Source: Bradyrhizobium genosp. L
Lineage (GTDB): Bacteria > Pseudomonadota > Alphaproteobacteria > Rhizobiales > Xanthobacteraceae
Direction of reading: 5' to 3'
Assembly: GCF_015624485.1 (NCBI RefSeq)
Contig: NZ_CP061378.1
Coordinates: 1,736,001 to 1,800,000 of the forward strand
Length of the DNA: 64,000 bases
The translations under genes were made by a program, and so were the position numbers. Under the pieces are notes generated by a model. It was not told the DNA's origin, ran no database searches, and saw only the letters and a list, made by a program, of their open reading frames with translations. Positions 36,784 to 52,405 of the stretch are shown here, piece by piece (position 1 is the stretch's first letter; the number at the start of each line of letters is the position of its first letter).

Positions 36784-36786
36784 GAC

Positions 36787-36870
36787 CGTCATTGCGAGCG
36801 AAGCGAAGCAATCCATCGCGCCGCAAGCGGAGAAATGGATTGCTTCGTCGCTACGCTCCTCGCAATGACG
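36787..36870. repeat. Palindromic intergenic repeat, family B
   Basis: Outer arms CGTCATTGCGAG (36787-36798) and CTCGCAATGACG (36859-36870) and inner arms GAAGCAATCCAT and ATGGATTGCTTC pair to make a long hairpin. It lies between the cupin and the enoyl-CoA hydratase genes. By general knowledge this is a dispersed repeat of Bradyrhizobium-like genomes. Confidence 0.8.
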
Positions 36871-36891
36871 AGGTAGTTCAGGGAGGCCAGC

Positions 36892-37629: not shown

Positions 37630-37657
37630 CAACGCAGCGGCGCCGCACCCTTGCTTT

Positions 37658-37763
37658 CGTCATTCCGGGGCTCGCGAAGCGAGAGCCCGGAATCCATCTA
37701 ACCGCGATACGCGCAGTGGAATGGATTCCGGGCTCGACGCCGGGCATCGCCCCGGAATGACAG
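37658..37763. repeat. Palindromic intergenic repeat, family C
   Basis: Outer arms TCATTCCGGGG (37660-37670) and CCCCGGAATGA (37750-37760) and inner 14-base arms AGCCCGGAATCCAT (37684-37697) and ATGGATTCCGGGCT (37721-37734) form a nested palindrome. It lies between convergent genes. Its outer arm shares CGTCATTCCGGGG with the element at 52440-52526. Confidence 0.8.
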
Positions 37764-41658: not shown

Positions 41659-42873
41659 CTAATAATTGATCCGCAGCCCGATGCCGCCATGCACGGTGTT
41701 GCCGACCGGCTGCGGGCCGGCGGTGCCGTTGACGAAGAGGTCGGCGATCCAGCCCTTGCTGATGCGGAAGCCGAGCCGGCCGCCATATTCGAACCAGCCC
41801 TGGTTGCCGATCGTCGGCACGATGGTGCCGTCGCCGGTGACGGTGGCGACGATGCCGGAATGGTTGGCAAAGGATTGCACCCAGCCGCCATTGACATTGG
41901 CTTCGACGCTCGAGCCGAACAGATGCGTCCACTGGCCACCGACCTTGACCAGATTGGTGCGGTCGGTACCGCCGGCGATGGTGGCGTCGAACGGGTTGAA
42001 CGCAACGGCCGGATCGCTGTAGCCCGCGACCCGCTGCCACAGCTGCCAGACTTCGACCGAGGCCGCGACCTCGTCGCGTGCCGACAGCCGGCTGATCCAC
42101 CCCGCACGGCCGTAGACGCCGTAGTTCTCGCTCGATGTCTCGCCGGTGACCGACACCGCGCCGAGGCTCGTGGTGTAGCTGCGGGTATAGCGCACCTTCT
42201 CGAACGGCGTGAGGATGGCGCCGATGTCGAAGAACGGCCGCGACGAGCCCCAGTCGACGAAATCGTAGCGCAGCGCGAAGGCGCCGATCGGTGCGCTGGT
42301 GACGCTGTAGCCGCCCTCGCTGTATTGCGTATAGGCGATGCCGGCGAGCAGCGACAGGTTCGGCGTGATGGTCTTGCGGCCATGGATGCCGGCCGAGAAC
42401 GAGCCGGCCGAGCCGAACGCGCTGACGCAGTCGTCGCAGTTGATCTGCTCATTGACGCCGAGCAGCACCGTGCCGAGCACCCGGTTGGTGATCATCTGGT
42501 TGAAGCGCTGATTGGCGAGCTCGTTGATCGAGTTGCCGCTCGACGGCGCGCCGGTGATCGGTGTTGACGTCGGTGTTGGCGTAGGAGTGGAGGTCGGCGT
42601 CGGTGTCACACTCGGTGTTGGCGTTGGCGTCGGCGTTGGTGTGGGCGTCGGTGTTGGCGTGGCGGTTGCGGACGGAGTTGGCGTCGGAGTTGGGGAAAAT
42701 GTCGGTGTCGGGCTCGGCGAAGGCGACGGACTTGGTGACGACGGGCAAGGTCCTTCGCAGTTGGTTGGAAACGTCGTGGTCTGAGCTGATGCGGACCTCG
42801 GGTGCGTCAACGCGAAGGCGGCCACCAACGCGACGATGAGCGCGAAAATCGAATGACGCATCTGGCGGCCCAT
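41659..42873 (-). CDS. Outer-membrane beta-barrel protein with Pro/Thr-rich stalk
   Basis: The precursor is about 404 residues. A signal peptide (residues 1-30, ending near SASAQ) is followed by a tract of Pro alternating with Thr or Ser (about residues 45-106), then a C-terminal domain of about 280 residues. That domain has alternating aromatic strands ([37 protein letters not shown]) and ends GIGLRINY, the terminal aromatic signature of outer-membrane barrels, resembling autotransporter translocators. It starts two bases after the fecR-like stop. The stalk is encoded by six-base repeats. Function is unknown; adhesion or surface display is plausible. Confidence 0.75.
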
Positions 42874-42875
42874 GC

Positions 42876-43586
42876 TCACCGCCCGCACAGCATGCCGGTG
42901 GGATCGTCTTCGACCGGCGGTGTCACCGGCGTCGCGTCGGCATATTGGGTGACCGAGCAGAGCCCCGCCGCCTGGCTGCAGGTAGCAGCAAAGGTCCATG
43001 GCGGGTTGTTGGTCCTCTGGATCGTCGTGCGTCCGCCGCTCGAGGCGATGATCGCGGTGTCGCCGGGCTGGGTGAGATCGAGACATTGCCGGCTCATGGT
43101 GCAGACGGTCGAGGCGCCTTCCTGCAGCACCACGACGGTCCTGCCGCGCTGCGACAGGATGTCGAGCACGGTGCCGCGCACGCCGATGGTCGCGAGCGGC
43201 GTCGTGATCGTGTAGGCGGCTTTCTCCGAATGACCGGTGACGAAGCGGAACGCGCCCGAGGTCAGCCGCACCGCGACGTCGCGATAATGGTGCTCGTCGT
43301 CGAACACCGTGCGATCGAGCTTGATCGAGGCGCTCGGACCGAGCGAGAGGTTGGTGCTGTCGGCCATCACCAGTCGCGTGGCACTGTCCTGGCCGGTGCG
43401 CACCGTCTCGTCGCGCAGCAGTGCGTCGCCGACATTGATCGGCGTCGTCGAGGCGGCGATGCGGGCAACATCGTTCTTGACCATCGCCGCTTCGCCGACG
43501 CGCGTCTGCGCCTGAACCGGATGAACCGTCAGTGCGACGACAAGGCCAACGACAACGATCGAGAGAAAGCCGTGACGCGAATTCAT
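42876..43586 (-). CDS. Exported FecR-domain protein
   Basis: This 236-residue protein has a signal peptide (to about residue 26, [10 protein letters not shown]) and a FecR domain: [36 protein letters not shown] and [16 protein letters not shown]. It lacks the cytoplasmic anti-sigma part of true FecR, and no ECF sigma gene is adjacent. Stand-alone exported FecR domains often accompany surface or secreted proteins. The C-terminus has paired cysteines ([15 protein letters not shown]). The barrel gene follows after two bases, so the two are translationally linked. Confidence 0.8.
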
Positions 43587-43778
43587 TTCCAAACCGATCA
43601 AGCGTCCCGTCACCGTACTGGATCGTGCCCCGACCAGATATTGTATAATTGCCACAAGCAGCGCTGAGTTGACTGGATGGTTAGTCTCGGTGGATACGAA
43701 ATGCGTTCAACGCGGTGGACGTCAAAGTGAGTTCCCGTCACACTCATCACACACGCCCCACGCGACGACATCGGCATA

Positions 43779-43808
43779 GCTCACATTTCGGCTCACACTC
43801 GGCTCACA
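43779..43808. promoter_or_regulatory. Triple GCTCACA direct repeat in divergent promoter region
   Basis: GCTCACA occurs at 43779-43785, 43791-43797 and 43802-43808, spaced 12 and 11 bases apart, about one helical turn. The set lies in the 250-bp region between the divergent fecR-like and PMT-like genes, just upstream of the latter. It may be a cooperative regulator-binding site; no regulator is assigned. Confidence 0.4.
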
Positions 43809-43836
43809 CTTGCCTCTGCGGGATCACCCTCGATCC

Positions 43837-45141
43837 GTGAACACTGCATCCCAGCCAGCCTCTCGTCTGCAGCGTCCCGCCGTGCGCACGGCGATCGTCG
43901 CGGCGATCATCTTCGCCGTCGCCCACGCCGTGCTGCTGCTTGGCATCACGACACCCGACAAGCTCTATTTCGACGAGGTGCATTACGTGCCGGCGGCGCG
44001 ACAGATGCTGCTGCCGGTCATGCCCGAGCCGATGCTCAATCCGATGCATCCGCCGCTTGCCAAGGAGATCATCGCGCTCTCGATCCGGGCGTTCGGCGAC
44101 ACGCCGTTGGGATGGCGCTATCCGGCGGCGCTGTTCGGCGCGCTGACGCTGGTCGGTGTCTATCTCGCCGCGCTGGCGCTGTTCGCTGCGCAGAGCCGCG
44201 CGATCGCGGCCGTGTTGCTGGCCTTCTTCAACCAGATGCTGTTCGTGCAGGCGCGGATCGCGATGCTGGATATTTTCGCGCTCGCCTTCAGCCTGTTCGC
44301 GATCGCGGCGTTCATCCACGGCTTCAGGCAGCAGCGGCCGCAACTGGCCTTCGCGCTGGCGGGATTTGCTGCGGGCCTGGCGGCTGCGAGCAAATGGAGC
44401 GGGCTGTTCGTGCTCGCAACCTCGATCGCGATCGTCGCGGTGATCCGCCTGATGCAGGGCTGGCGTACGCGCTTTGCCGACGCCAACGCAGACGACTGGT
44501 ACCAGCCGGATCTGTGGCCGGATTTCCGCCTCTCGCATGTCATCGCCTGCTTCGTGCTGATCCCGGCGGTGGCCTATCTTGCGACCTTCCTGCCGCTCTA
44601 CGGGCTTTCGCTTCCCGATCTGATCGAGGCGCAGCGCCGGATCTTTGCCGACAACACCACGAGTGCGATACCCGGCCACACCTATATGAGCTCGTGGCCG
44701 TCCTGGCCGTTCCTGGTGCGGCCGGTCTGGTATCTGTTCGACAAGATCGGTGACGACCGCATCGCGGCGGTCGTGCTTCTCGGCAATCCGCTGATCCTGT
44801 GGCCGGCCCTGATCGCGCTCATGGTCGCGCTGCGCGACTGGATCGTCGCGCGCAGCCGCGATGCGTTCCTGGCGCTGGCGTTCTATCTCGGCCCGTATCT
44901 GGCCTGGGCGCTGCTGCCGCGCACGCTCGGCTTCATCTATTATTACCTGCCGGCCGCGACCACCGCGAGCTTCATGCTGGTCTACGCATTGACGCGCAAG
45001 GGGATGCCGCGCTGGCTGTTGTGGGCCTTCGTAGCGATCGGATGCCTGGGTTTCGTCGCGATGCTGCCGGTCACGGCGGCCGCGATCGGGACGTCGATGG
45101 CGACTTTCAGCCGGCTGATGCTGTTCCAGAACTGGATCTGA
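43837..45141 (+). CDS. GT39-family protein-O-mannosyltransferase-like membrane glycosyltransferase
   Basis: This protein of about 434 residues has many hydrophobic segments (around ten). The first lumenal-type loop carries YFDEVHYVPAARQML with Asp46-Glu47, and then NPMHPPLAKEII; both are hallmarks of PMT/GT39 enzymes, which use lipid-linked sugar in the membrane. ASKWSGLFVLATS also fits. Start codons are weak: a GTG at 43837 is preferred to a TTG at 43810. It faces away from the gene pair whose barrel product has a Thr/Pro stalk. Donor and acceptor are unknown. Confidence 0.78.
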   Translation: MNTASQPASRLQRPAVRTAIVAAIIFAVAHAVLLLGITTPDKLYFDEVHYVPAARQMLLPVMPEPMLNPMHPPLAKEIIALSIRAFGDTPLGWRYPAALFGALTLVGVYLAALALFAAQSRAIAAVLLAFFNQMLFVQARIAMLDIFALAFSLFAIAAFIHGFRQQRPQLAFALAGFAAGLAAASKWSGLFVLATSIAIVAVIRLMQGWRTRFADANADDWYQPDLWPDFRLSHVIACFVLIPAVAYLATFLPLYGLSLPDLIEAQRRIFADNTTSAIPGHTYMSSWPSWPFLVRPVWYLFDKIGDDRIAAVVLLGNPLILWPALIALMVALRDWIVARSRDAFLALAFYLGPYLAWALLPRTLGFIYYYLPAATTASFMLVYALTRKGMPRWLLWAFVAIGCLGFVAMLPVTAAAIGTSMATFSRLMLFQNWI

Positions 45142-45181: not shown

Positions 45182-45817
45182 TTACTGCGACGCGGCGGTC
45201 TTGGTTTCCATGTTCACGACCTGGACGCGACGGTTGGTCGGGTCGAACGGTGCATTCGGGTCCTTCGGCCGGGACTTGCCGTAACCGACCGTCACGAGGT
45301 TGGTGCCGTTCAGGCCATAGTGCTCGACCAGGTACCTCTTGATGGTGTCGGCGCGGCGCTCCGACAGCTCCTGATTATAGGCATCGCCGCCGACGGCGTC
45401 GGTGTGGCCGGCGATCACGAAGGTCTGCTCTTTCATGCTGGCGTCCGACAGGGCCTTGCCGAGCTCCTCCACCGAAGGGGTCGCATCCCTGCTGATCTCG
45501 GCCGAGTTGTAATTGAAGTGGATCTCGAGATCGATCTTCGGCTTGTTGGCCGCGATCTCGGCGATCTCCTGGCGTTCGCCGAGCGACAGCGACCGGGTCT
45601 TCCGGTTGCGCACCGAGTTGATGAAGCCGGCTTCCTTGGCGGAGACGGCCGGGTCGACCTGCTGTCCGGCCGACAGGCCGCGGGTCGCCGATTTCGGCTT
45701 CAGCGCATTCAGGATCTGGGCGGCCGGGACGGTGTCGCTGCCGGCCAATGCGACGCCCGCCGTCATCGACAGCGCAGCGCCGATCGTCAAAAGGGAAAAG
45801 GAAAGAGAGCGGGTCAT
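45182..45817 (-). CDS. OmpA-family peptidoglycan-binding protein
   Basis: This 211-residue precursor has a signal peptide (to about residue 25, GVALAGSDTV). Its C-terminal OmpA-like domain contains HFNYNSAEISRDA, the AGHTDAVGGDAYN loop with the conserved Asp, and ELSERRADTIKRYL with the Arg that holds diaminopimelate. There is no N-terminal barrel, so it is a periplasmic peptidoglycan-associated protein. The ATG follows GAGGACC. It is divergent from the YcaQ-like gene. Confidence 0.88.
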   Translation of the reverse strand: MTRSLSFSLLTIGAALSMTAGVALAGSDTVPAAQILNALKPKSATRGLSAGQQVDPAVSAKEAGFINSVRNRKTRSLSLGERQEIAEIAANKPKIDLEIHFNYNSAEISRDATPSVEELGKALSDASMKEQTFVIAGHTDAVGGDAYNQELSERRADTIKRYLVEHYGLNGTNLVTVGYGKSRPKDPNAPFDPTNRRVQVVNMETKTAASQ

Positions 45818-45969
45818 GATCTGGTCCTCAAACGGTGACAGCCAAATGGGCTTGCTGTCGTTTTGATGCTGGGACCGTACGACCGGTTCAAAGCCATGAA
45901 TGTGATGCATGTCACGTTGAAGTTCCCGAACTCCCGGATTGGCACGAATCTCACTACATTGCCGAACAA

Positions 45970-47458: not shown

Positions 47459-47491
47459 CTTCATCAGTCGTCAGCCCGATGGAGAGATCCG

Positions 47492-48598
47492 ATGTTCGTC
47501 CGTTCCATTTTTTCGAGCTATTACAGGCTCTTGACGGGGGCGTCGTTGGCTTTCGCGGTGTTCGCGCTGACCGGCTGTAATGAGAAGGCGGCGGAAAACG
47601 CCGATCCGGGACGGCCAGTCCTGGTGGCGACCGTCCATTACGAAGCCGAAACCCCCGAGCGCAGCTTCGTCGGCACGATCAAGCCCCGGATCGAAGCCGA
47701 TATGGGCTTTCGGGTGGCCGGCAAGGTGGCCAAGCGGCTGGTCGAGGTCGGACAGACAGTCGACGTCGATCAGCCCTTGGCCACCCTCGACGAGGTCGAT
47801 TTGAAGCTGCAGGCCGAGCAGGCGCAGGCCGAATTCAGCGCCGCGACCGGGGTGCTGGCGCAGGCCGCCGCCGCCGAGCAGCGCGCCAAGGACCTGAAGG
47901 CCAAGGGCTGGGCCACCGATGCCGCGCTGGATTCCGCCAAGGCCGCCGGCGACGAAGCCCGTGCCCGGCTCAACCGCGCCGAGCGCTCGGTCGAACTGAC
48001 CAACAATTCCCTCTCTTACGCAACGCTGGTGGCCGACACCCGGGGTGTCGTCACCGCGACCATGATCGAGCCGGGCCAGGTGGTTGCCGCGGGCCAGGCA
48101 TCGATCCGTGTCGCCCGACTTGGCGAGAAGGAAGCTGTCGTCGCGATCCCAGAGACGCTTCTTGCTCGTGCCAGGTCGGGCGTCGCCACGGTGACGCTGT
48201 GGTCGGATGCCAAGAAGACCTATGCCGCCAAGCTGCGCGAGGTCGCGCCGCAGGCCGATCCCGCGACCCGCACCTATCTCGCGAAATTCTCGCTGCCCGA
48301 GGCCGACGATGCCGTCTCGCTCGGCATGACGGCAACCCTCACCTTGGCTGACAAGGCGACCGAGCGGGTGGCCAAGCTGCCGCTGTCGGCGCTGTACAGC
48401 CAGGGCGGCGATCCCTCGCTCTACATCGTCGACGACAAGGGCGACATCGCGCTCAAGCCGGTCAAGGTGCAGGCCTATGAGAGCAACTGCGTCGTGATCG
48501 CCGGCGGCGTCGCCGAGGGCGCCAAGGTGGTCGCGCTCGGCGTGCAGAAACTCGATCCGAGCCAGAAGGTTCGGGTCGTGTCGTCGCTGTCGTTCTAG
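47492..48598 (+). CDS. RND efflux periplasmic adaptor lipoprotein
   Basis: This 368-residue membrane-fusion protein has a lipoprotein signal ending in LTGC at Cys29. Two lipoyl-type half-motifs flank a coiled coil: GFRVAGKVAKRLVEVGQTVD before it, and LVADTRGVVTATMIEPGQVV after it. The coiled coil spans about residues 100-165 with AEQAQAEFSAATGVLAQAAA. It links the inner-membrane pump encoded next to an outer-membrane channel, for which no gene is present here. GGAGAG precedes the ATG. Confidence 0.9.
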   Translation: MFVRSIFSSYYRLLTGASLAFAVFALTGCNEKAAENADPGRPVLVATVHYEAETPERSFVGTIKPRIEADMGFRVAGKVAKRLVEVGQTVDVDQPLATLDEVDLKLQAEQAQAEFSAATGVLAQAAAAEQRAKDLKAKGWATDAALDSAKAAGDEARARLNRAERSVELTNNSLSYATLVADTRGVVTATMIEPGQVVAAGQASIRVARLGEKEAVVAIPETLLARARSGVATVTLWSDAKKTYAAKLREVAPQADPATRTYLAKFSLPEADDAVSLGMTATLTLADKATERVAKLPLSALYSQGGDPSLYIVDDKGDIALKPVKVQAYESNCVVIAGGVAEGAKVVALGVQKLDPSQKVRVVSSLSF

Positions 48599-48634
48599 CT
48601 GTAGCGGAAACGGTTCTGGGACCTGGAGAGTTCG

Positions 48635-51600
48635 ATGAAGCGCTTCAACCTTTCGGCCTGGGCGGTCAGCCATCCGACGCTGGTCTTGTTCCTGATGATC
48701 GTGCTCGGCGTCGCCGGCTACTTCTCCTACGAGAAGCTCGGCCGTGCCGAGGATCCGTTCTTCACGGTCAAGGTGGTGAACGTCTCGGTGATGTGGCCGG
48801 GCGCGACCTCGCAGGAAATGCAGATGCAGGTCGCCGATCCGATCGAGAAGAAGCTGCAGGAGCTGCCGTTCTTCGACAAGGTGCAGACCTATTCCAAGCC
48901 GGGCTTCACGGCGATGCAGGTCTCCTTCAAGGATTCGACCTCGCCGAAGGACGTGCCCTATCTCTTCTATCTGCTGCGCAAGAAGCTGGTCGACGTCCAG
49001 GGCGAGCTGCCCTCCGGCATCCTCGGCCCCGTCGTCAACGACGAATTCTCCGACGTCGATTCGATCCTCTACATGATGACCGGCGACGGCGCCGATTATG
49101 CGCAATTGAAGAAAGTCGCGGAAGGCTTCCGCCAGCGCCTGCTCAAGGTGCCCGGCGTGACCAAGATCGACCTCTACGGCATCCAGGACGAGCGCATCTT
49201 CGTCGAGTTCTCGCATGCCAAGCTTGCAACCCTCGGCATCACGCCGCAGGCGCTGTTCGATTCGCTCGCCAAGCAGAACAACGTGACGCCGGCAGGCACC
49301 GTGGAAACCTCCTCGCAGCGCGTGCCGCTGCGCGTCACCGGCGCGCTCGACGGCGTCAAGGCGGTCGCCGAGACGCCGGTCGAGAGCAATGGCCGCGTGT
49401 TCCGGCTCGGCGACATCGCCACCGTCACCCACGGTTATGTCGATCCGCCAACCTTCAAGGTGCGGCAGGAAGGCAAGCCCGCGCTCGGCATCGGCGTCGT
49501 CACCGCCAAGGGCGCCAACATCCTCGAGCTCGGCAAGGACGTCGCACAGGCGACCGCCGAGTTCATGAAGGCGGTGCCGCAGGGCATCAATGTCGACCAG
49601 ATCGCCGATCAGCCCAAGGTGGTCGAACACGCCGTCGGCGAGTTCGTGCACTCCTTCGTCGAGGCGCTGGCGATCGTGCTGTTCGTTTCCTTTGTCGCGC
49701 TCGGCTGGCGCACCGGCATCGTGGTGGCGCTGTCGGTGCCGCTGGTGCTCGGCATCGTCTTCATCGTGATGAACGCGATGTCGCTCGACCTGCACAGAAT
49801 TACGCTGGGTGCGCTGATCATCGCGCTCGGCCTCCTGGTCGACGACGCCATCATCGCGGTCGAGATGATGGTGGTGAAGATGGAGCAGGGCTGGGATCGC
49901 ATGAAGGCGGCGTCCTTTGCCTGGGAATCCACCGCGTTTCCGATGCTGACCGGCACGCTGGTCACCGCGGCCGGCTTTCTGCCGATCGGCTTTGCCAATT
50001 CGGCGGTGGGCGAATATGCCGGCGGTATCTTCTGGATCGTGGCGATCGCGCTGGTCGCCTCCTGGTTCGTCGCGGTGATCTTCACGCCCTATATCGGCGT
50101 CAAGCTGTTGCCCAACATCAAGGTGCACCAGAACCACGATCCGCACGCAATCTACGAGACGCGGATGTATCGCGGCTTGCGCAGCATCGTGCAGTGGTGC
50201 GTCGATCACCGCATCAAGGTGGTGGTGGCGACCGTCGGCGTCTTCTTCGCCTCGATCGTCGCGTTCGGCCACGTCCAGCAGCAGTTCTTCCCGCTGTCGG
50301 AGCGGCCCGAATTGTTCCTGCAGCTCCGCCTGCCCGAGGGCACGGCCTTCAACGTCACCGAGAAGGCGGTCAAGAAGGCCGAGGCGCTGCTCAAGGACGA
50401 CCAGGACATCGAGACCTACACCGCCTATGTTGGCCAGGGCTCGCCGCGCTTCTGGCTCGGCCTCAATCCGCAGCTGCCGAACGAGGCCTTTGCCGAGATC
50501 GTCATCCTGTCCAAGAACGTCGAGGCGCGCGAGCGCATCAAGGCCAAGATCGAGCAGGCCGCGGCCGATGGCGCGCTCAACGAGGCGCGGGTCCGGGTCG
50601 ACCGTTTCAACTTCGGTCCGCCGGTCGGCTTCCCGGTTCAGTTCCGCGTGATCGGGCCCGACGCCAGCAAGGTGCGCGACATCGCCTATCAGGTCCGCGA
50701 GGTCATGCGCCAGAACCCGAACGTCAAGGACGTCCAGCTCGACTGGAACGAGCAATCGCCCTATCTGAAGCTGGTCGTCGACCAGGACCGCGCCCGCGCG
50801 CTCGGCCTCACCCCGCAGGACGTCTCGCAGGCGCTGGCGATGCTGATCTCGGGCGCGTCGGTCACCACGATCCGCGACGGCATCGAGAAGGTCGGCGTGG
50901 TCGCCCGCGCCGTGCCGGCCGAGCGGCTCGATCTTGGCCGCGTCGGCGATCTCACCATCACCTCGCGCAACGGCGTTGCCGTGCCGCTGCAGCAGATCGC
51001 CAAGATCGAATATGCCCATGAGGAGCCGATCCTGTGGCGGCGCAACCGCGACATGGCGATCACCGTGCGCTCCGACGTCATCGACGGCGTGCAGGCGCCC
51101 GACGTCACCAACCAGATCGCGCCGAAGCTGAAGGACATCCAGGCGCATCTTGAGCCCGCTTACCGCATTGAGCCGGGCGGGGCGTTCGAGGAATCCGCCA
51201 AGGGCAATGCCTCGATCTTCATCCTCTTCCCGGTGATGGTGATGGTGATGTTGACGCTGCTGATGATCCAGCTGCAGAGCTTCTCGCGCCTGTTGCTGGT
51301 GTTCCTGACCGCGCCGCTCGGCATCGTCGGCGCCTCGCTGGGGCTCAACGTTGCCAACCAACCATTCGGTTTCGTGGCCCTCCTCGGATTGATCGCGCTG
51401 GCCGGCATGATCATGCGCAACACCGTGATCCTGGTCGATCAGATCGAGAGCGACGTGGCGAGCGGCCTGACCCGGCGGGAAGCCATCGTGGAGGCCGCGG
51501 TCCGCCGCGCCCGCCCGGTGGTGCTGACCGCGCTTGCGGCGATCCTCGCCATGATCCCGCTGTCGCGCTCGGCGTTCTGGGGACCGATGGCGATCACCAT

Positions 51601-51775
51601 CATGGGCGGTTTGTTTGTTGCGACTTTCCTCACCTTGCTGTATCTGCCGGGCCTTTACGCCCTCTGGTTCCGCAAGTCCCTCGATGAGTGCGGTCCCGGC
51701 GTGCAAACTGATACTGCGCCGCAGCATGCCGGAGATGCGCAACGCGCAATTCCGCTTGCTGAAGCGGCTGAATAA
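48635..51775 (+). CDS. RND-family efflux pump permease
   Basis: This 1046-residue inner-membrane protein is of full RND length with twelve expected membrane segments: NPxx-type start (SHPTLVLFLMIVLGVAGYFS) and large periplasmic loops after segments 1 and 7. ALIIALGLLVDDAIIAVEMM in segment 4 carries the paired Asp residues of the proton relay, and a second set near residue 910 includes ALAGMIMRNTVILVDQ. It is of the hydrophobe/amphiphile efflux-1 type. It sits 36 bp downstream of the adaptor gene, and the TetR gene follows almost directly. Substrates are not inferable. Confidence 0.92.
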   Translation: MKRFNLSAWAVSHPTLVLFLMIVLGVAGYFSYEKLGRAEDPFFTVKVVNVSVMWPGATSQEMQMQVADPIEKKLQELPFFDKVQTYSKPGFTAMQVSFKDSTSPKDVPYLFYLLRKKLVDVQGELPSGILGPVVNDEFSDVDSILYMMTGDGADYAQLKKVAEGFRQRLLKVPGVTKIDLYGIQDERIFVEFSHAKLATLGITPQALFDSLAKQNNVTPAGTVETSSQRVPLRVTGALDGVKAVAETPVESNGRVFRLGDIATVTHGYVDPPTFKVRQEGKPALGIGVVTAKGANILELGKDVAQATAEFMKAVPQGINVDQIADQPKVVEHAVGEFVHSFVEALAIVLFVSFVALGWRTGIVVALSVPLVLGIVFIVMNAMSLDLHRITLGALIIALGLLVDDAIIAVEMMVVKMEQGWDRMKAASFAWESTAFPMLTGTLVTAAGFLPIGFANSAVGEYAGGIFWIVAIALVASWFVAVIFTPYIGVKLLPNIKVHQNHDPHAIYETRMYRGLRSIVQWCVDHRIKVVVATVGVFFASIVAFGHVQQQFFPLSERPELFLQLRLPEGTAFNVTEKAVKKAEALLKDDQDIETYTAYVGQGSPRFWLGLNPQLPNEAFAEIVILSKNVEARERIKAKIEQAAADGALNEARVRVDRFNFGPPVGFPVQFRVIGPDASKVRDIAYQVREVMRQNPNVKDVQLDWNEQSPYLKLVVDQDRARALGLTPQDVSQALAMLISGASVTTIRDGIEKVGVVARAVPAERLDLGRVGDLTITSRNGVAVPLQQIAKIEYAHEEPILWRRNRDMAITVRSDVIDGVQAPDVTNQIAPKLKDIQAHLEPAYRIEPGGAFEESAKGNASIFILFPVMVMVMLTLLMIQLQSFSRLLLVFLTAPLGIVGASLGLNVANQPFGFVALLGLIALAGMIMRNTVILVDQIESDVASGLTRREAIVEAAVRRARPVVLTALAAILAMIPLSRSAFWGPMAITIMGGLFVATFLTLLYLPGLYALWFRKSLDECGPGVQTDTAPQHAGDAQRAIPLAEAAE

Positions 51776-51796
51776 TTGAAGATTGAGCAGGCCAAC

Positions 51797-52405
51797 ATGA
51801 CGCTGATCTCGGAACATAGCGAAACCGACACCCGTGAGCGGATTCTCACGGTGGCGGAGCGTCTGTTCCGGCAGATCGGCTACCTCAAGACCACGGTTGC
51901 CGACATCGCCAAGGAGCTCAGGATGAGCCCCGCCAACGTGTACCGCTTCTTCGACTCGAAGAAGTCGATCCACGAGGGCGTGGCGCGCCGGTTGATGGGC
52001 GAGGTCGAGGTCGAGGCACAGCGCATCGCGCTGCGGTCGGGGTCGGCCGCGGTGCGGTTGCGCGACTTGATGATTTCAGTCAATCGCATGAACACCGAGC
52101 GCTATGTCGGCGACAGCAAGCTGCACGAGATGGTCGAAATCGCGATGCAGGAAGACTGGGACGTCTGCGTTATCCATATGGAGACGATCACCGGCGCCAT
52201 CGGCCAGGTGATCGCGCAGGGCGTCGCATCCGGCGAGTTCGAGGTCAAGGACCTGATGACCGCATCGCTGTGTGCCTGCACGGCGATGATGCGCTTCTTC
52301 CACCCGCAGATGATCGCCCAGTGCGCGACCAAGCCGGGCCCGACCATCGACGAGATGATCGATTTCGTCATCGCGGGGCTGGCTCCGCGGGTCCGGGCGA
52401 ACTGA
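51797..52405 (+). CDS. TetR-family transcriptional regulator
   Basis: This 202-residue regulator has a helix-turn-helix near residues 30-50: TTVADIAKELRMSPANVYRF then FDSKKSIHEGV. A C-terminal helical ligand domain has DWDVCVIHMETITGAIGQV. The ATG at 51797 is preceded by GAGCAGG; a TTG at 51776 abuts the pump stop and would add seven residues. Its place at the operon end makes it the likely repressor of the efflux genes and the protein expected to bind the inverted repeat at 47414-47449. Confidence 0.88.
   Translation: MTLISEHSETDTRERILTVAERLFRQIGYLKTTVADIAKELRMSPANVYRFFDSKKSIHEGVARRLMGEVEVEAQRIALRSGSAAVRLRDLMISVNRMNTERYVGDSKLHEMVEIAMQEDWDVCVIHMETITGAIGQVIAQGVASGEFEVKDLMTASLCACTAMMRFFHPQMIAQCATKPGPTIDEMIDFVIAGLAPRVRAN

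What the first reader, a model, noticed from the sequence alone, without database searches (positions are those of the whole stretch)
41659..45141. Candidate O-mannosylated surface-protein module: Pro/Thr-stalk barrel, FecR-domain protein and a divergent PMT-like glycosyltransferase
Seen: a two-gene unit encodes an exported FecR-domain protein and an outer-membrane barrel protein whose signal peptide and barrel are joined by about 60 residues of alternating Pro and Thr/Ser. A GT39/PMT-type enzyme with FDEVHYVP and HPPLAKE motifs is encoded divergently 250 bp away. Known: PMT-family enzymes O-mannosylate Thr/Pro-rich segments of exported proteins in yeast and actinobacteria. Inference: the transferase modifies the stalk and the FecR-domain protein assists assembly or sensing. 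I do not know of such a module described for alphaproteobacteria.
Basis: partly seen in the sequence, partly recalled or inferred. Interest (0 to 1): 0.72.

Follow-up and report, generated by a model that had tools for sequence, protein, structure and literature searches.

The report
Autotransporter with sugar-transferase-linked Pro/Thr passenger
Bradyrhizobium bacteria carry a surface protein whose exposed part is probably just a short threonine/serine/proline chain, next to an enzyme of the family that attaches mannose to such chains, and the few sampled species that lost the enzyme have also lost most of that chain, which suggests that the enzyme decorates it.

The parts
41659..42861 (-). 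Autotransporter-like outer-membrane protein, 400 aa: signal peptide, Cys-containing cap, Pro/Thr/Ser passenger, helix and 12-strand barrel
   Evidence: ORF; alignment; AF2; fold search
42781..42861 (-). Signal-peptide-like N terminus, by inspection
   Evidence: sequence; no predictor was run
42745..42780 (-). Cap before the repeat ([12 protein letters not shown]); at least two Cys in 84 of 99 linkers
42553..42744 (-). 64-residue Pro/Thr/Ser passenger, predicted acceptor of the PMT-family enzyme
41659..42546 (-). Helix plus 12-strand barrel (stretch modelled)
42876..43586 (-). FecR-domain protein, 236 aa, signal-peptide-like start by inspection, Cys-rich C terminus; first gene of the pair
   Evidence: PF04773 58.5 bits; orthologue in 98 of 98 genomes with a full barrel match
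43587..43836 (.). Divergent intergenic region between FecR and PMT genes
   Evidence: no regulatory motif established
43837..45141 (+). PMT-family (GT39) membrane glycosyltransferase, 434 aa if started at 43837
   Evidence: PF02366, PF16192; PDB profile matches; alignment
45182..45910 (-). OmpA-family protein; frequent neighbour, not shown to belong to the system
   Evidence: PF00691 71.9 bits; near PMT in most of the 40 loci

Best explanation
A minimal type Va-like autotransporter displays a short disordered, mucin-like Thr/Ser/Pro passenger (linkers of roughly 26-95 residues in enzyme-bearing genomes) and is encoded with a FecR-domain partner. The divergent PMT-family enzyme in the inner membrane takes a sugar (most likely mannose) from polyprenyl phosphate and puts it on Thr/Ser of the passenger on the periplasmic side, before the chain threads through its barrel to the surface. 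The enzyme also has other exported substrates, which is why it is kept where the pair is lost. Shown: gene anatomy, barrel fold (model), co-retention of FecR and barrel, parallel loss of enzyme and Thr/Ser passenger, a gene of the donor synthase's type in the genome. Inferred: modification of the passenger, sugar identity, order of events, surface display, FecR role.
For: Enzyme family. Barrel fold. Genus-wide: 251 of 265 genomes match the enzyme, G033 (remnant) and G830 (5e-6) included. The three enzyme-less genomes with a full barrel (G745, G091, G051) have the three lowest Thr+Ser counts of 99 linkers; their six nearest enzyme-bearing barrels by BLAST carry 16-23 (G745) and 20-42 (G051, G091). 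G033, where PMT residues of about 98-420 are gone, has 11 against 17-24 in its six nearest. Random draw of three loss events (G745, G051/G091 as one, G033) with so low a sum: 1.5e-5 of draws; 6.2e-4 if G734 is added. G102, G020 and G074 have Ser/Thr repeats nearly without Pro and an enzyme. Donor: a GT2 plus GtrA_DPMS_TM protein is encoded, best PDB match dolichol monophosphate mannose synthase (5mlz, E 1.7e-50; PF04138 71.7 bits). Substrate fit: the M. tuberculosis PMT prefers Pro-rich Ser/Thr peptides (PMC12331936, passages).
Against: No glycan data. At most about three independent enzyme losses, and the tree tool notes that one origin of the enzyme-less state is not ruled out (starred branches force one change; label clustering as low in 127 of 500 shuffles). 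The draw test does not control relatedness. G843, grouped with G051/G091 on the quick tree (support 86), has few Thr/Ser (7) with an intact enzyme, so shrinkage may precede enzyme loss. G734 has a PMT read in two frames but a normal passenger (27). In Bradyrhizobium sp. S69 (L298) the pair lies away from any PMT with a normal passenger; whether that genome has a PMT elsewhere was not tested. Pro was lost along with Thr/Ser in the enzyme-less genomes (6, 6 and 1 left). 22 of 117 sampled enzyme-bearing genomes lack a full pair.
Confidence: 0.6

Rival explanations
1. The enzyme modifies other exported proteins (a general periplasmic O-mannosyltransferase) and its place beside the pair is incidental; the passenger is an unmodified spacer.
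For: Enzyme kept in 22 of 117 sampled genomes without a full pair, with omega 0.145-0.256 in 7 pairs of pair-less genomes against 0.124-0.174 in 4 pairs with it. PF16192 match in 91 of 199 genomes of another family, no barrel or FecR homologue in the 23 loci looked at. Another exported-looking Pro/Thr/Ser protein (GyrI-like, L067) in the genome.
Against: Thr/Ser of the passenger is nearly gone in 3 of 3 enzyme-less genomes with a full barrel and reduced in the remnant case.
Confidence: 0.2
2. Parallel decay: a change of lifestyle relaxed the need for the whole locus, so enzyme and passenger eroded separately with no enzyme-substrate relation.
For: Pair lost beside a kept enzyme in 16 of 126 genomes and degraded in others; G051 and G091 are metagenome bins; the G745 barrel is on a long branch; G843 has few Thr/Ser with the enzyme intact; FecR omega between G051 and G091 is 0.87 over 157 codons.
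Against: Between G051 and G091 the barrel stays under purifying selection (omega 0.14), and in G745, G051 and G091 the barrel frames are open and FecR is unbroken as far as the contigs reach, while passenger and enzyme are gone.
Confidence: 0.15
3. The enzyme is a lipid or envelope-polysaccharide glycosyltransferase of the ArnT type, not a protein modifier.
For: Many bacterial PF02366/PF13231 proteins act on lipid A or glycans (recalled); the NCBIfam PMT equivalog is not reached (76 of 800 bits).
Against: PF16192, which rang in only 1 of 14 control genomes (Corynebacterium glutamicum), is above cut-off; at E 0.01 the family profile finds in the PDB only three sequences, all named protein mannosyltransferases.
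Confidence: 0.05

Closest known systems
Actinobacterial protein O-mannosylation (Ppm1 + Pmt; PMC12331936 and PMC12757957 passages, PMC5882110 abstract start)
   Same: GT39 enzyme; a polyprenyl-phosphate-mannose-synthase-like gene in the genome; Pro-rich Ser/Thr acceptors.
   Different: Gram-negative Bradyrhizobium; far below the NCBIfam equivalog cut-off (76 of 800 bits); the gene lies beside a candidate outer-membrane acceptor.
Heptosylated autotransporters AIDA-I/TibA with BAHT enzymes (PMC4358343, PMC3835316; listing and abstract starts only)
   Same: An autotransporter whose passenger would be O-glycosylated (with a transferase gene nearby, as recalled for AIDA-I/TibA).
   Different: Here a membrane enzyme of the PMT family, not a BAHT heptosyltransferase; the passenger is a short Thr/Ser/Pro chain, not a long folded one (recalled).
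Type Va autotransporters EstA, NalP, AaaA, EspP, AIDA-I
   Same: 12-strand barrel with an N-proximal helix.
   Different: No folded passenger; no Pfam match. The one relative found in 114 sampled genomes of other genera of the family (G193, 31%) has a long N-terminal region, and its own relatives are named HAF-repeat proteins.

Membership tests
GT39 / PMT family | PF02366 and PF16192 above curated cut-off | tested here: met
   49.9/22.7 and 40.4/32.4 bits
GT39 / PMT family | First-loop FDE and HP..K motifs; acidic residue in RIxMLD | tested here: met
   F30 D31 E32, H56 P57, K61 invariant and D130 nearly so in 33 aligned sequences
GT39 / PMT family | Loop motif HxYxS....W shared with Pmt1 | tested here: met
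   H266, Y268, S270, W275 invariant; aligned to 6p25
GT39 / PMT family | Rx2Y/F motif of the fifth outer loop (PMC12331936, passages) | tested here: inconclusive
   LPRTLGF has R one position off in the profile alignment to 6p25; no alignment to the M. tuberculosis enzyme was made
Actinobacterial PMT equivalog (NF058602) | Equivalog cut-off 800 bits | tested here: not met
   76.1 bits; not filed there
GT39 / PMT family | Transfer of mannose to Ser/Thr | not testable with these tools
   needs biochemistry
Type Va autotransporter (by fold) | 12-strand barrel with N-proximal helix | tested here: met
Type Va autotransporter (by fold) | C-terminal aromatic residue (feature recalled) | tested here: met
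   Tyr in 101 of 102
Type Va autotransporter (by fold) | Cleavable signal peptide | tested here: inconclusive
   by inspection only
Type Va autotransporter (by fold) | Passenger carried to the surface | not testable with these tools
   needs protease shaving
Pfam autotransporter barrel PF03797 | Sequence match to the model | tested here: not met
   no match for the window protein, and PF03797 is not among the families matched by 32 relatives at E up to 1; not filed there
FecR domain PF04773 | Above cut-off | tested here: met
   58.5/24 bits
BAHT heptosyltransferase systems | BAHT gene beside the autotransporter | not tested
   no search made

The most novel reading that the evidence does not exclude
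A Gram-negative protein O-mannosylation system with a dedicated surface-display substrate: an autotransporter whose whole passenger is a mucin-like Thr/Ser chain glycosylated by a periplasmic-facing PMT before it threads its own barrel, so that enzyme and acceptor co-evolve; O-mannosylation of exported proteins would then reach beyond actinobacteria to Bradyrhizobium and a second family of the same class.
Probability: 0.43. Interest if true: 0.8.

Novelty: new variant of a known kind. Interest (0 to 1): 0.61.

Why it matters
In the passages seen, protein O-mannosylation in bacteria is described for actinobacteria (PMC3068309; PMC12757957). A genus of plant symbionts and soil bacteria in which nearly all held genomes match a PMT-family enzyme, beside a surface protein whose exposed part is little more than candidate acceptor sites, would give a simple genetic model for PMT specificity, for passage of a glycosylated chain through an autotransporter, and possibly for root-surface interaction. 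The natural enzyme-less lineages make the idea directly testable.

Tried and rejected
Rejected: stalk as a mere periplasmic spacer (the modelled helix plus barrel puts the segment in the passenger position; not proven). Rejected: repeat as a product of DNA slippage only (codon diversity). Rejected: strict three-gene module. In 23 enzyme loci of the second family no barrel or FecR homologue was found. A scan of the frames there listed 16 with Pro/Thr/Ser runs, the strongest in L157 and L164, before the script stopped with an error; many may be non-coding and none was followed, so Pro/Thr-rich neighbours are not excluded. No conserved regulatory motif was recognised in the divergent region. No PDB sequence match for the enzyme alone; for the barrel profile only weak superoxide dismutase hits. 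The first AF2 model of the full barrel protein was poor (pLDDT 47.5) and was not used. The careful barrel tree did not finish; only a quick tree was read. NCBIfam gave the donor-synthase-like GT2 no name above cut-off.

Literature: searches gave nothing on O-mannosylation or a PMT in Bradyrhizobium, Rhizobiales or alphaproteobacteria; only open-licence PMC papers are held, so this does not show that nothing is in print. One search on Neisseria low-complexity glycosylation gave no paper. Papers: passages of PMC12331936, PMC12757957, PMC3068309 and PMC9289746; listing and abstract starts of PMC4358343, PMC3835316 and PMC5882110.

Rows dropped: one genome (G026) failed the motif, and G082 and G072 were not fetched, so 95 of the 98 full barrels of the 126-genome sample were used; 7 more (G745, G843, G734, G801, G770, G783, G858) were added from a list picked for missing or odd enzyme matches, so the set is not random for enzyme status. 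G858, G077 and G031 were then left out of the 99 because passenger and barrel are in different frames. The linker cut is approximate: in some rows it takes in the end of the signal peptide. Among the 94 counted as enzyme-bearing, G801, G016 and G770 have the enzyme cut or split by contig ends.

Full report
Setting. The window is bases 1736001-1800000 of a 7.40 Mb single-contig genome (G000) whose named relatives in the protein searches are mostly Bradyrhizobium.

Anatomy. The autotransporter-like gene is 42861-41659 (-), the FecR-domain gene 43586-42876 (-), and the PMT-family gene 43837-45141 (+), 250 bp from the FecR start. FecR stop and barrel ATG are 14 bp apart, or 2 bp if the barrel starts at 42873. 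The barrel protein has a signal-peptide-like start, a cap with a Cys pair, a 64-residue Pro/Thr/Ser run, then helix and barrel. Of 99 linkers, 84 have at least two Cys; NCxxC near the barrel start is present in 102 of 102.

What the enzyme is. PF02366 and PF16192 both pass their cut-offs. A profile of 33 relatives finds three sequences in the PDB at E up to 0.01, all named dolichyl-phosphate-mannose protein mannosyltransferases (6p25 3.6e-21, 9i5k 8.8e-20, 9e61 1.4e-12). The FDE, HP..K and HxYxS....W positions are invariant in the 33 sequences. It is far from the NCBIfam PMT equivalog (76 of 800 bits). PF16192 rings in 4 of 289 genomes drawn across the class: the window's own and three of one other family; in that family it is in 91 of 199. 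In 119 genomes of the window's own family the enzyme matches in 6: five of this genus and G161 at 7.7e-4. The genome also encodes a GT2 protein with a GtrA/DPMS membrane domain whose best PDB match is dolichol monophosphate mannose synthase (5mlz, 1.7e-50), a plausible donor synthase.

Conservation in the genus. In a sample of 126 genomes, 118 match the enzyme; one of these (G033) is a remnant, leaving 117. The barrel domain is full in 98, fragmentary in 7 and absent in 21. All 98 with a full barrel have the FecR orthologue (in G051 cut by a contig end), and the 26 without that orthologue have no full barrel, so the two genes behave as one unit. In two of the 98 (G077, G031) the passenger is out of frame with the barrel. 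Of the 117 with the enzyme, 95 have a full barrel, 16 none and 6 a degraded one. Of the 9 without an intact enzyme, 3 have a full barrel, 1 a fragment and 5 none (Fisher p 0.0038; relatedness not controlled). In 40 fetched loci the order VOC genes, pair, enzyme, OmpA is mostly kept, and most lost pairs leave the flanks in place.

The natural experiment. All 265 held genomes of the genus were searched for the enzyme: 251 match at E up to 0.001, the remnant G033 and the weak G830 included. The 14 without, and 8 with weak, split, double or low-scoring matches, were searched for the barrel. Full barrels without an enzyme: G745 (single contig, 100% complete), G091 (enzyme missing from inside a 56 kb contig) and G051 (FecR at the contig end; 95% complete). 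Their linkers hold 2, 2 and 3 Thr+Ser, the three lowest of 99; 94 genomes counted as enzyme-bearing range from 7 to 56, median 22. G033, whose enzyme lacks about residues 98-420, has 11, against 17-24 in its six nearest relatives by BLAST. Length alone does not separate them: G055 has a 26-residue linker with 12 Thr+Ser and an enzyme. Proline is not the constant: G102, G020 and G074 have Ser/Thr repeats with 3-7 Pro in linkers of 67-95 residues and an enzyme, while a homologue closest to G091 and G051 (P0104, context unknown) has a run of eight Pro with Thr/Ser only at either end. Drawing three events at random gives so low a sum in 1.5e-5 of draws, with the sister pair G051/G091 as one unit; 6.2e-4 if G734 is added. 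On the quick tree the enzyme-less genomes need two changes and G033 sits elsewhere, but the tool notes that one origin is not ruled out and that the place of the long G745 branch is unsure.

Results that cut the other way. G843 (7 Thr+Ser, intact enzyme) groups with G051/G091 at support 86, so the passenger may shrink first; it is not among their six best BLAST neighbours. G734 has an enzyme read in two frames (real or sequencing error) and a normal passenger. In 80 named loci (best 80 of 106) the enzyme is found at 400 residues or more in 76; of the four others, L250 and L251 are the bins G091 and G051, L275 ends at a contig edge, and L298 has the pair with a normal passenger elsewhere, with no enzyme or usual neighbours in 12.9 kb. 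The enzyme in pair-less genomes has omega 0.145-0.256 (7 pairs) against 0.124-0.174 (4 pairs) beside a pair, so it has further work to do. One candidate is an exported-looking GyrI-like protein with a Pro/Thr/Ser segment in this genome.

Mechanism. Bacterial PMT enzymes act on secreted chains with a polyprenyl-phosphate sugar flipped to the outer face of the membrane (PMC12757957, passages), and the M. tuberculosis enzyme prefers Pro-rich Ser/Thr segments through a WW-like loop (PMC12331936, passages). The most likely order here is export, modification of the passenger in the periplasm, then threading through the barrel. That passengers can be glycosylated is known for AIDA-I and TibA (PMC4358343, PMC3835316; listing and abstract starts only). 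Between G051 and G091 the barrel is still constrained without enzyme and passenger (omega 0.14), so the barrel-FecR pair should have a function of its own; the glycosylated passenger would be an addition such as hydrated shielding or adhesion. This last step is inference.

Verdict. New variant of a known kind.

Noticed in passing
L031, L167, L189 (G077, G858, G031): In three genomes the passenger and the barrel are in different reading frames, in G077 and G858 at the same place; intact copies exist in relatives. Loss of the gene, sequencing error or on/off switching in the repeat were not told apart.
   Followed up: partly
L159 (G616, second family): The enzyme lies near homologues of both VOC genes of the window locus (53% and 44%), which hints at transfer of the VOC-PMT stretch between the two families.
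   Followed up: partly
L298 (Bradyrhizobium sp. S69): FecR-barrel pair with a normal passenger away from VOC, OmpA and PMT genes, so the pair can move or duplicate as a unit.
   Followed up: partly
L067:1039-1803 (-): Exported-looking GyrI-like protein with a Pro/Thr/Ser segment after its signal-peptide-like start, another possible substrate.
   Followed up: no
window 47471-51973 (-): 1500-codon open frame antisense to an RND-efflux-like gene pair (naming by inspection), most likely a shadow of high GC content.
   Followed up: no
window about 36784-36891 and 37630-37760: Frames here read like common rhizobial intergenic repeat elements (label recalled, not searched).
   Followed up: no
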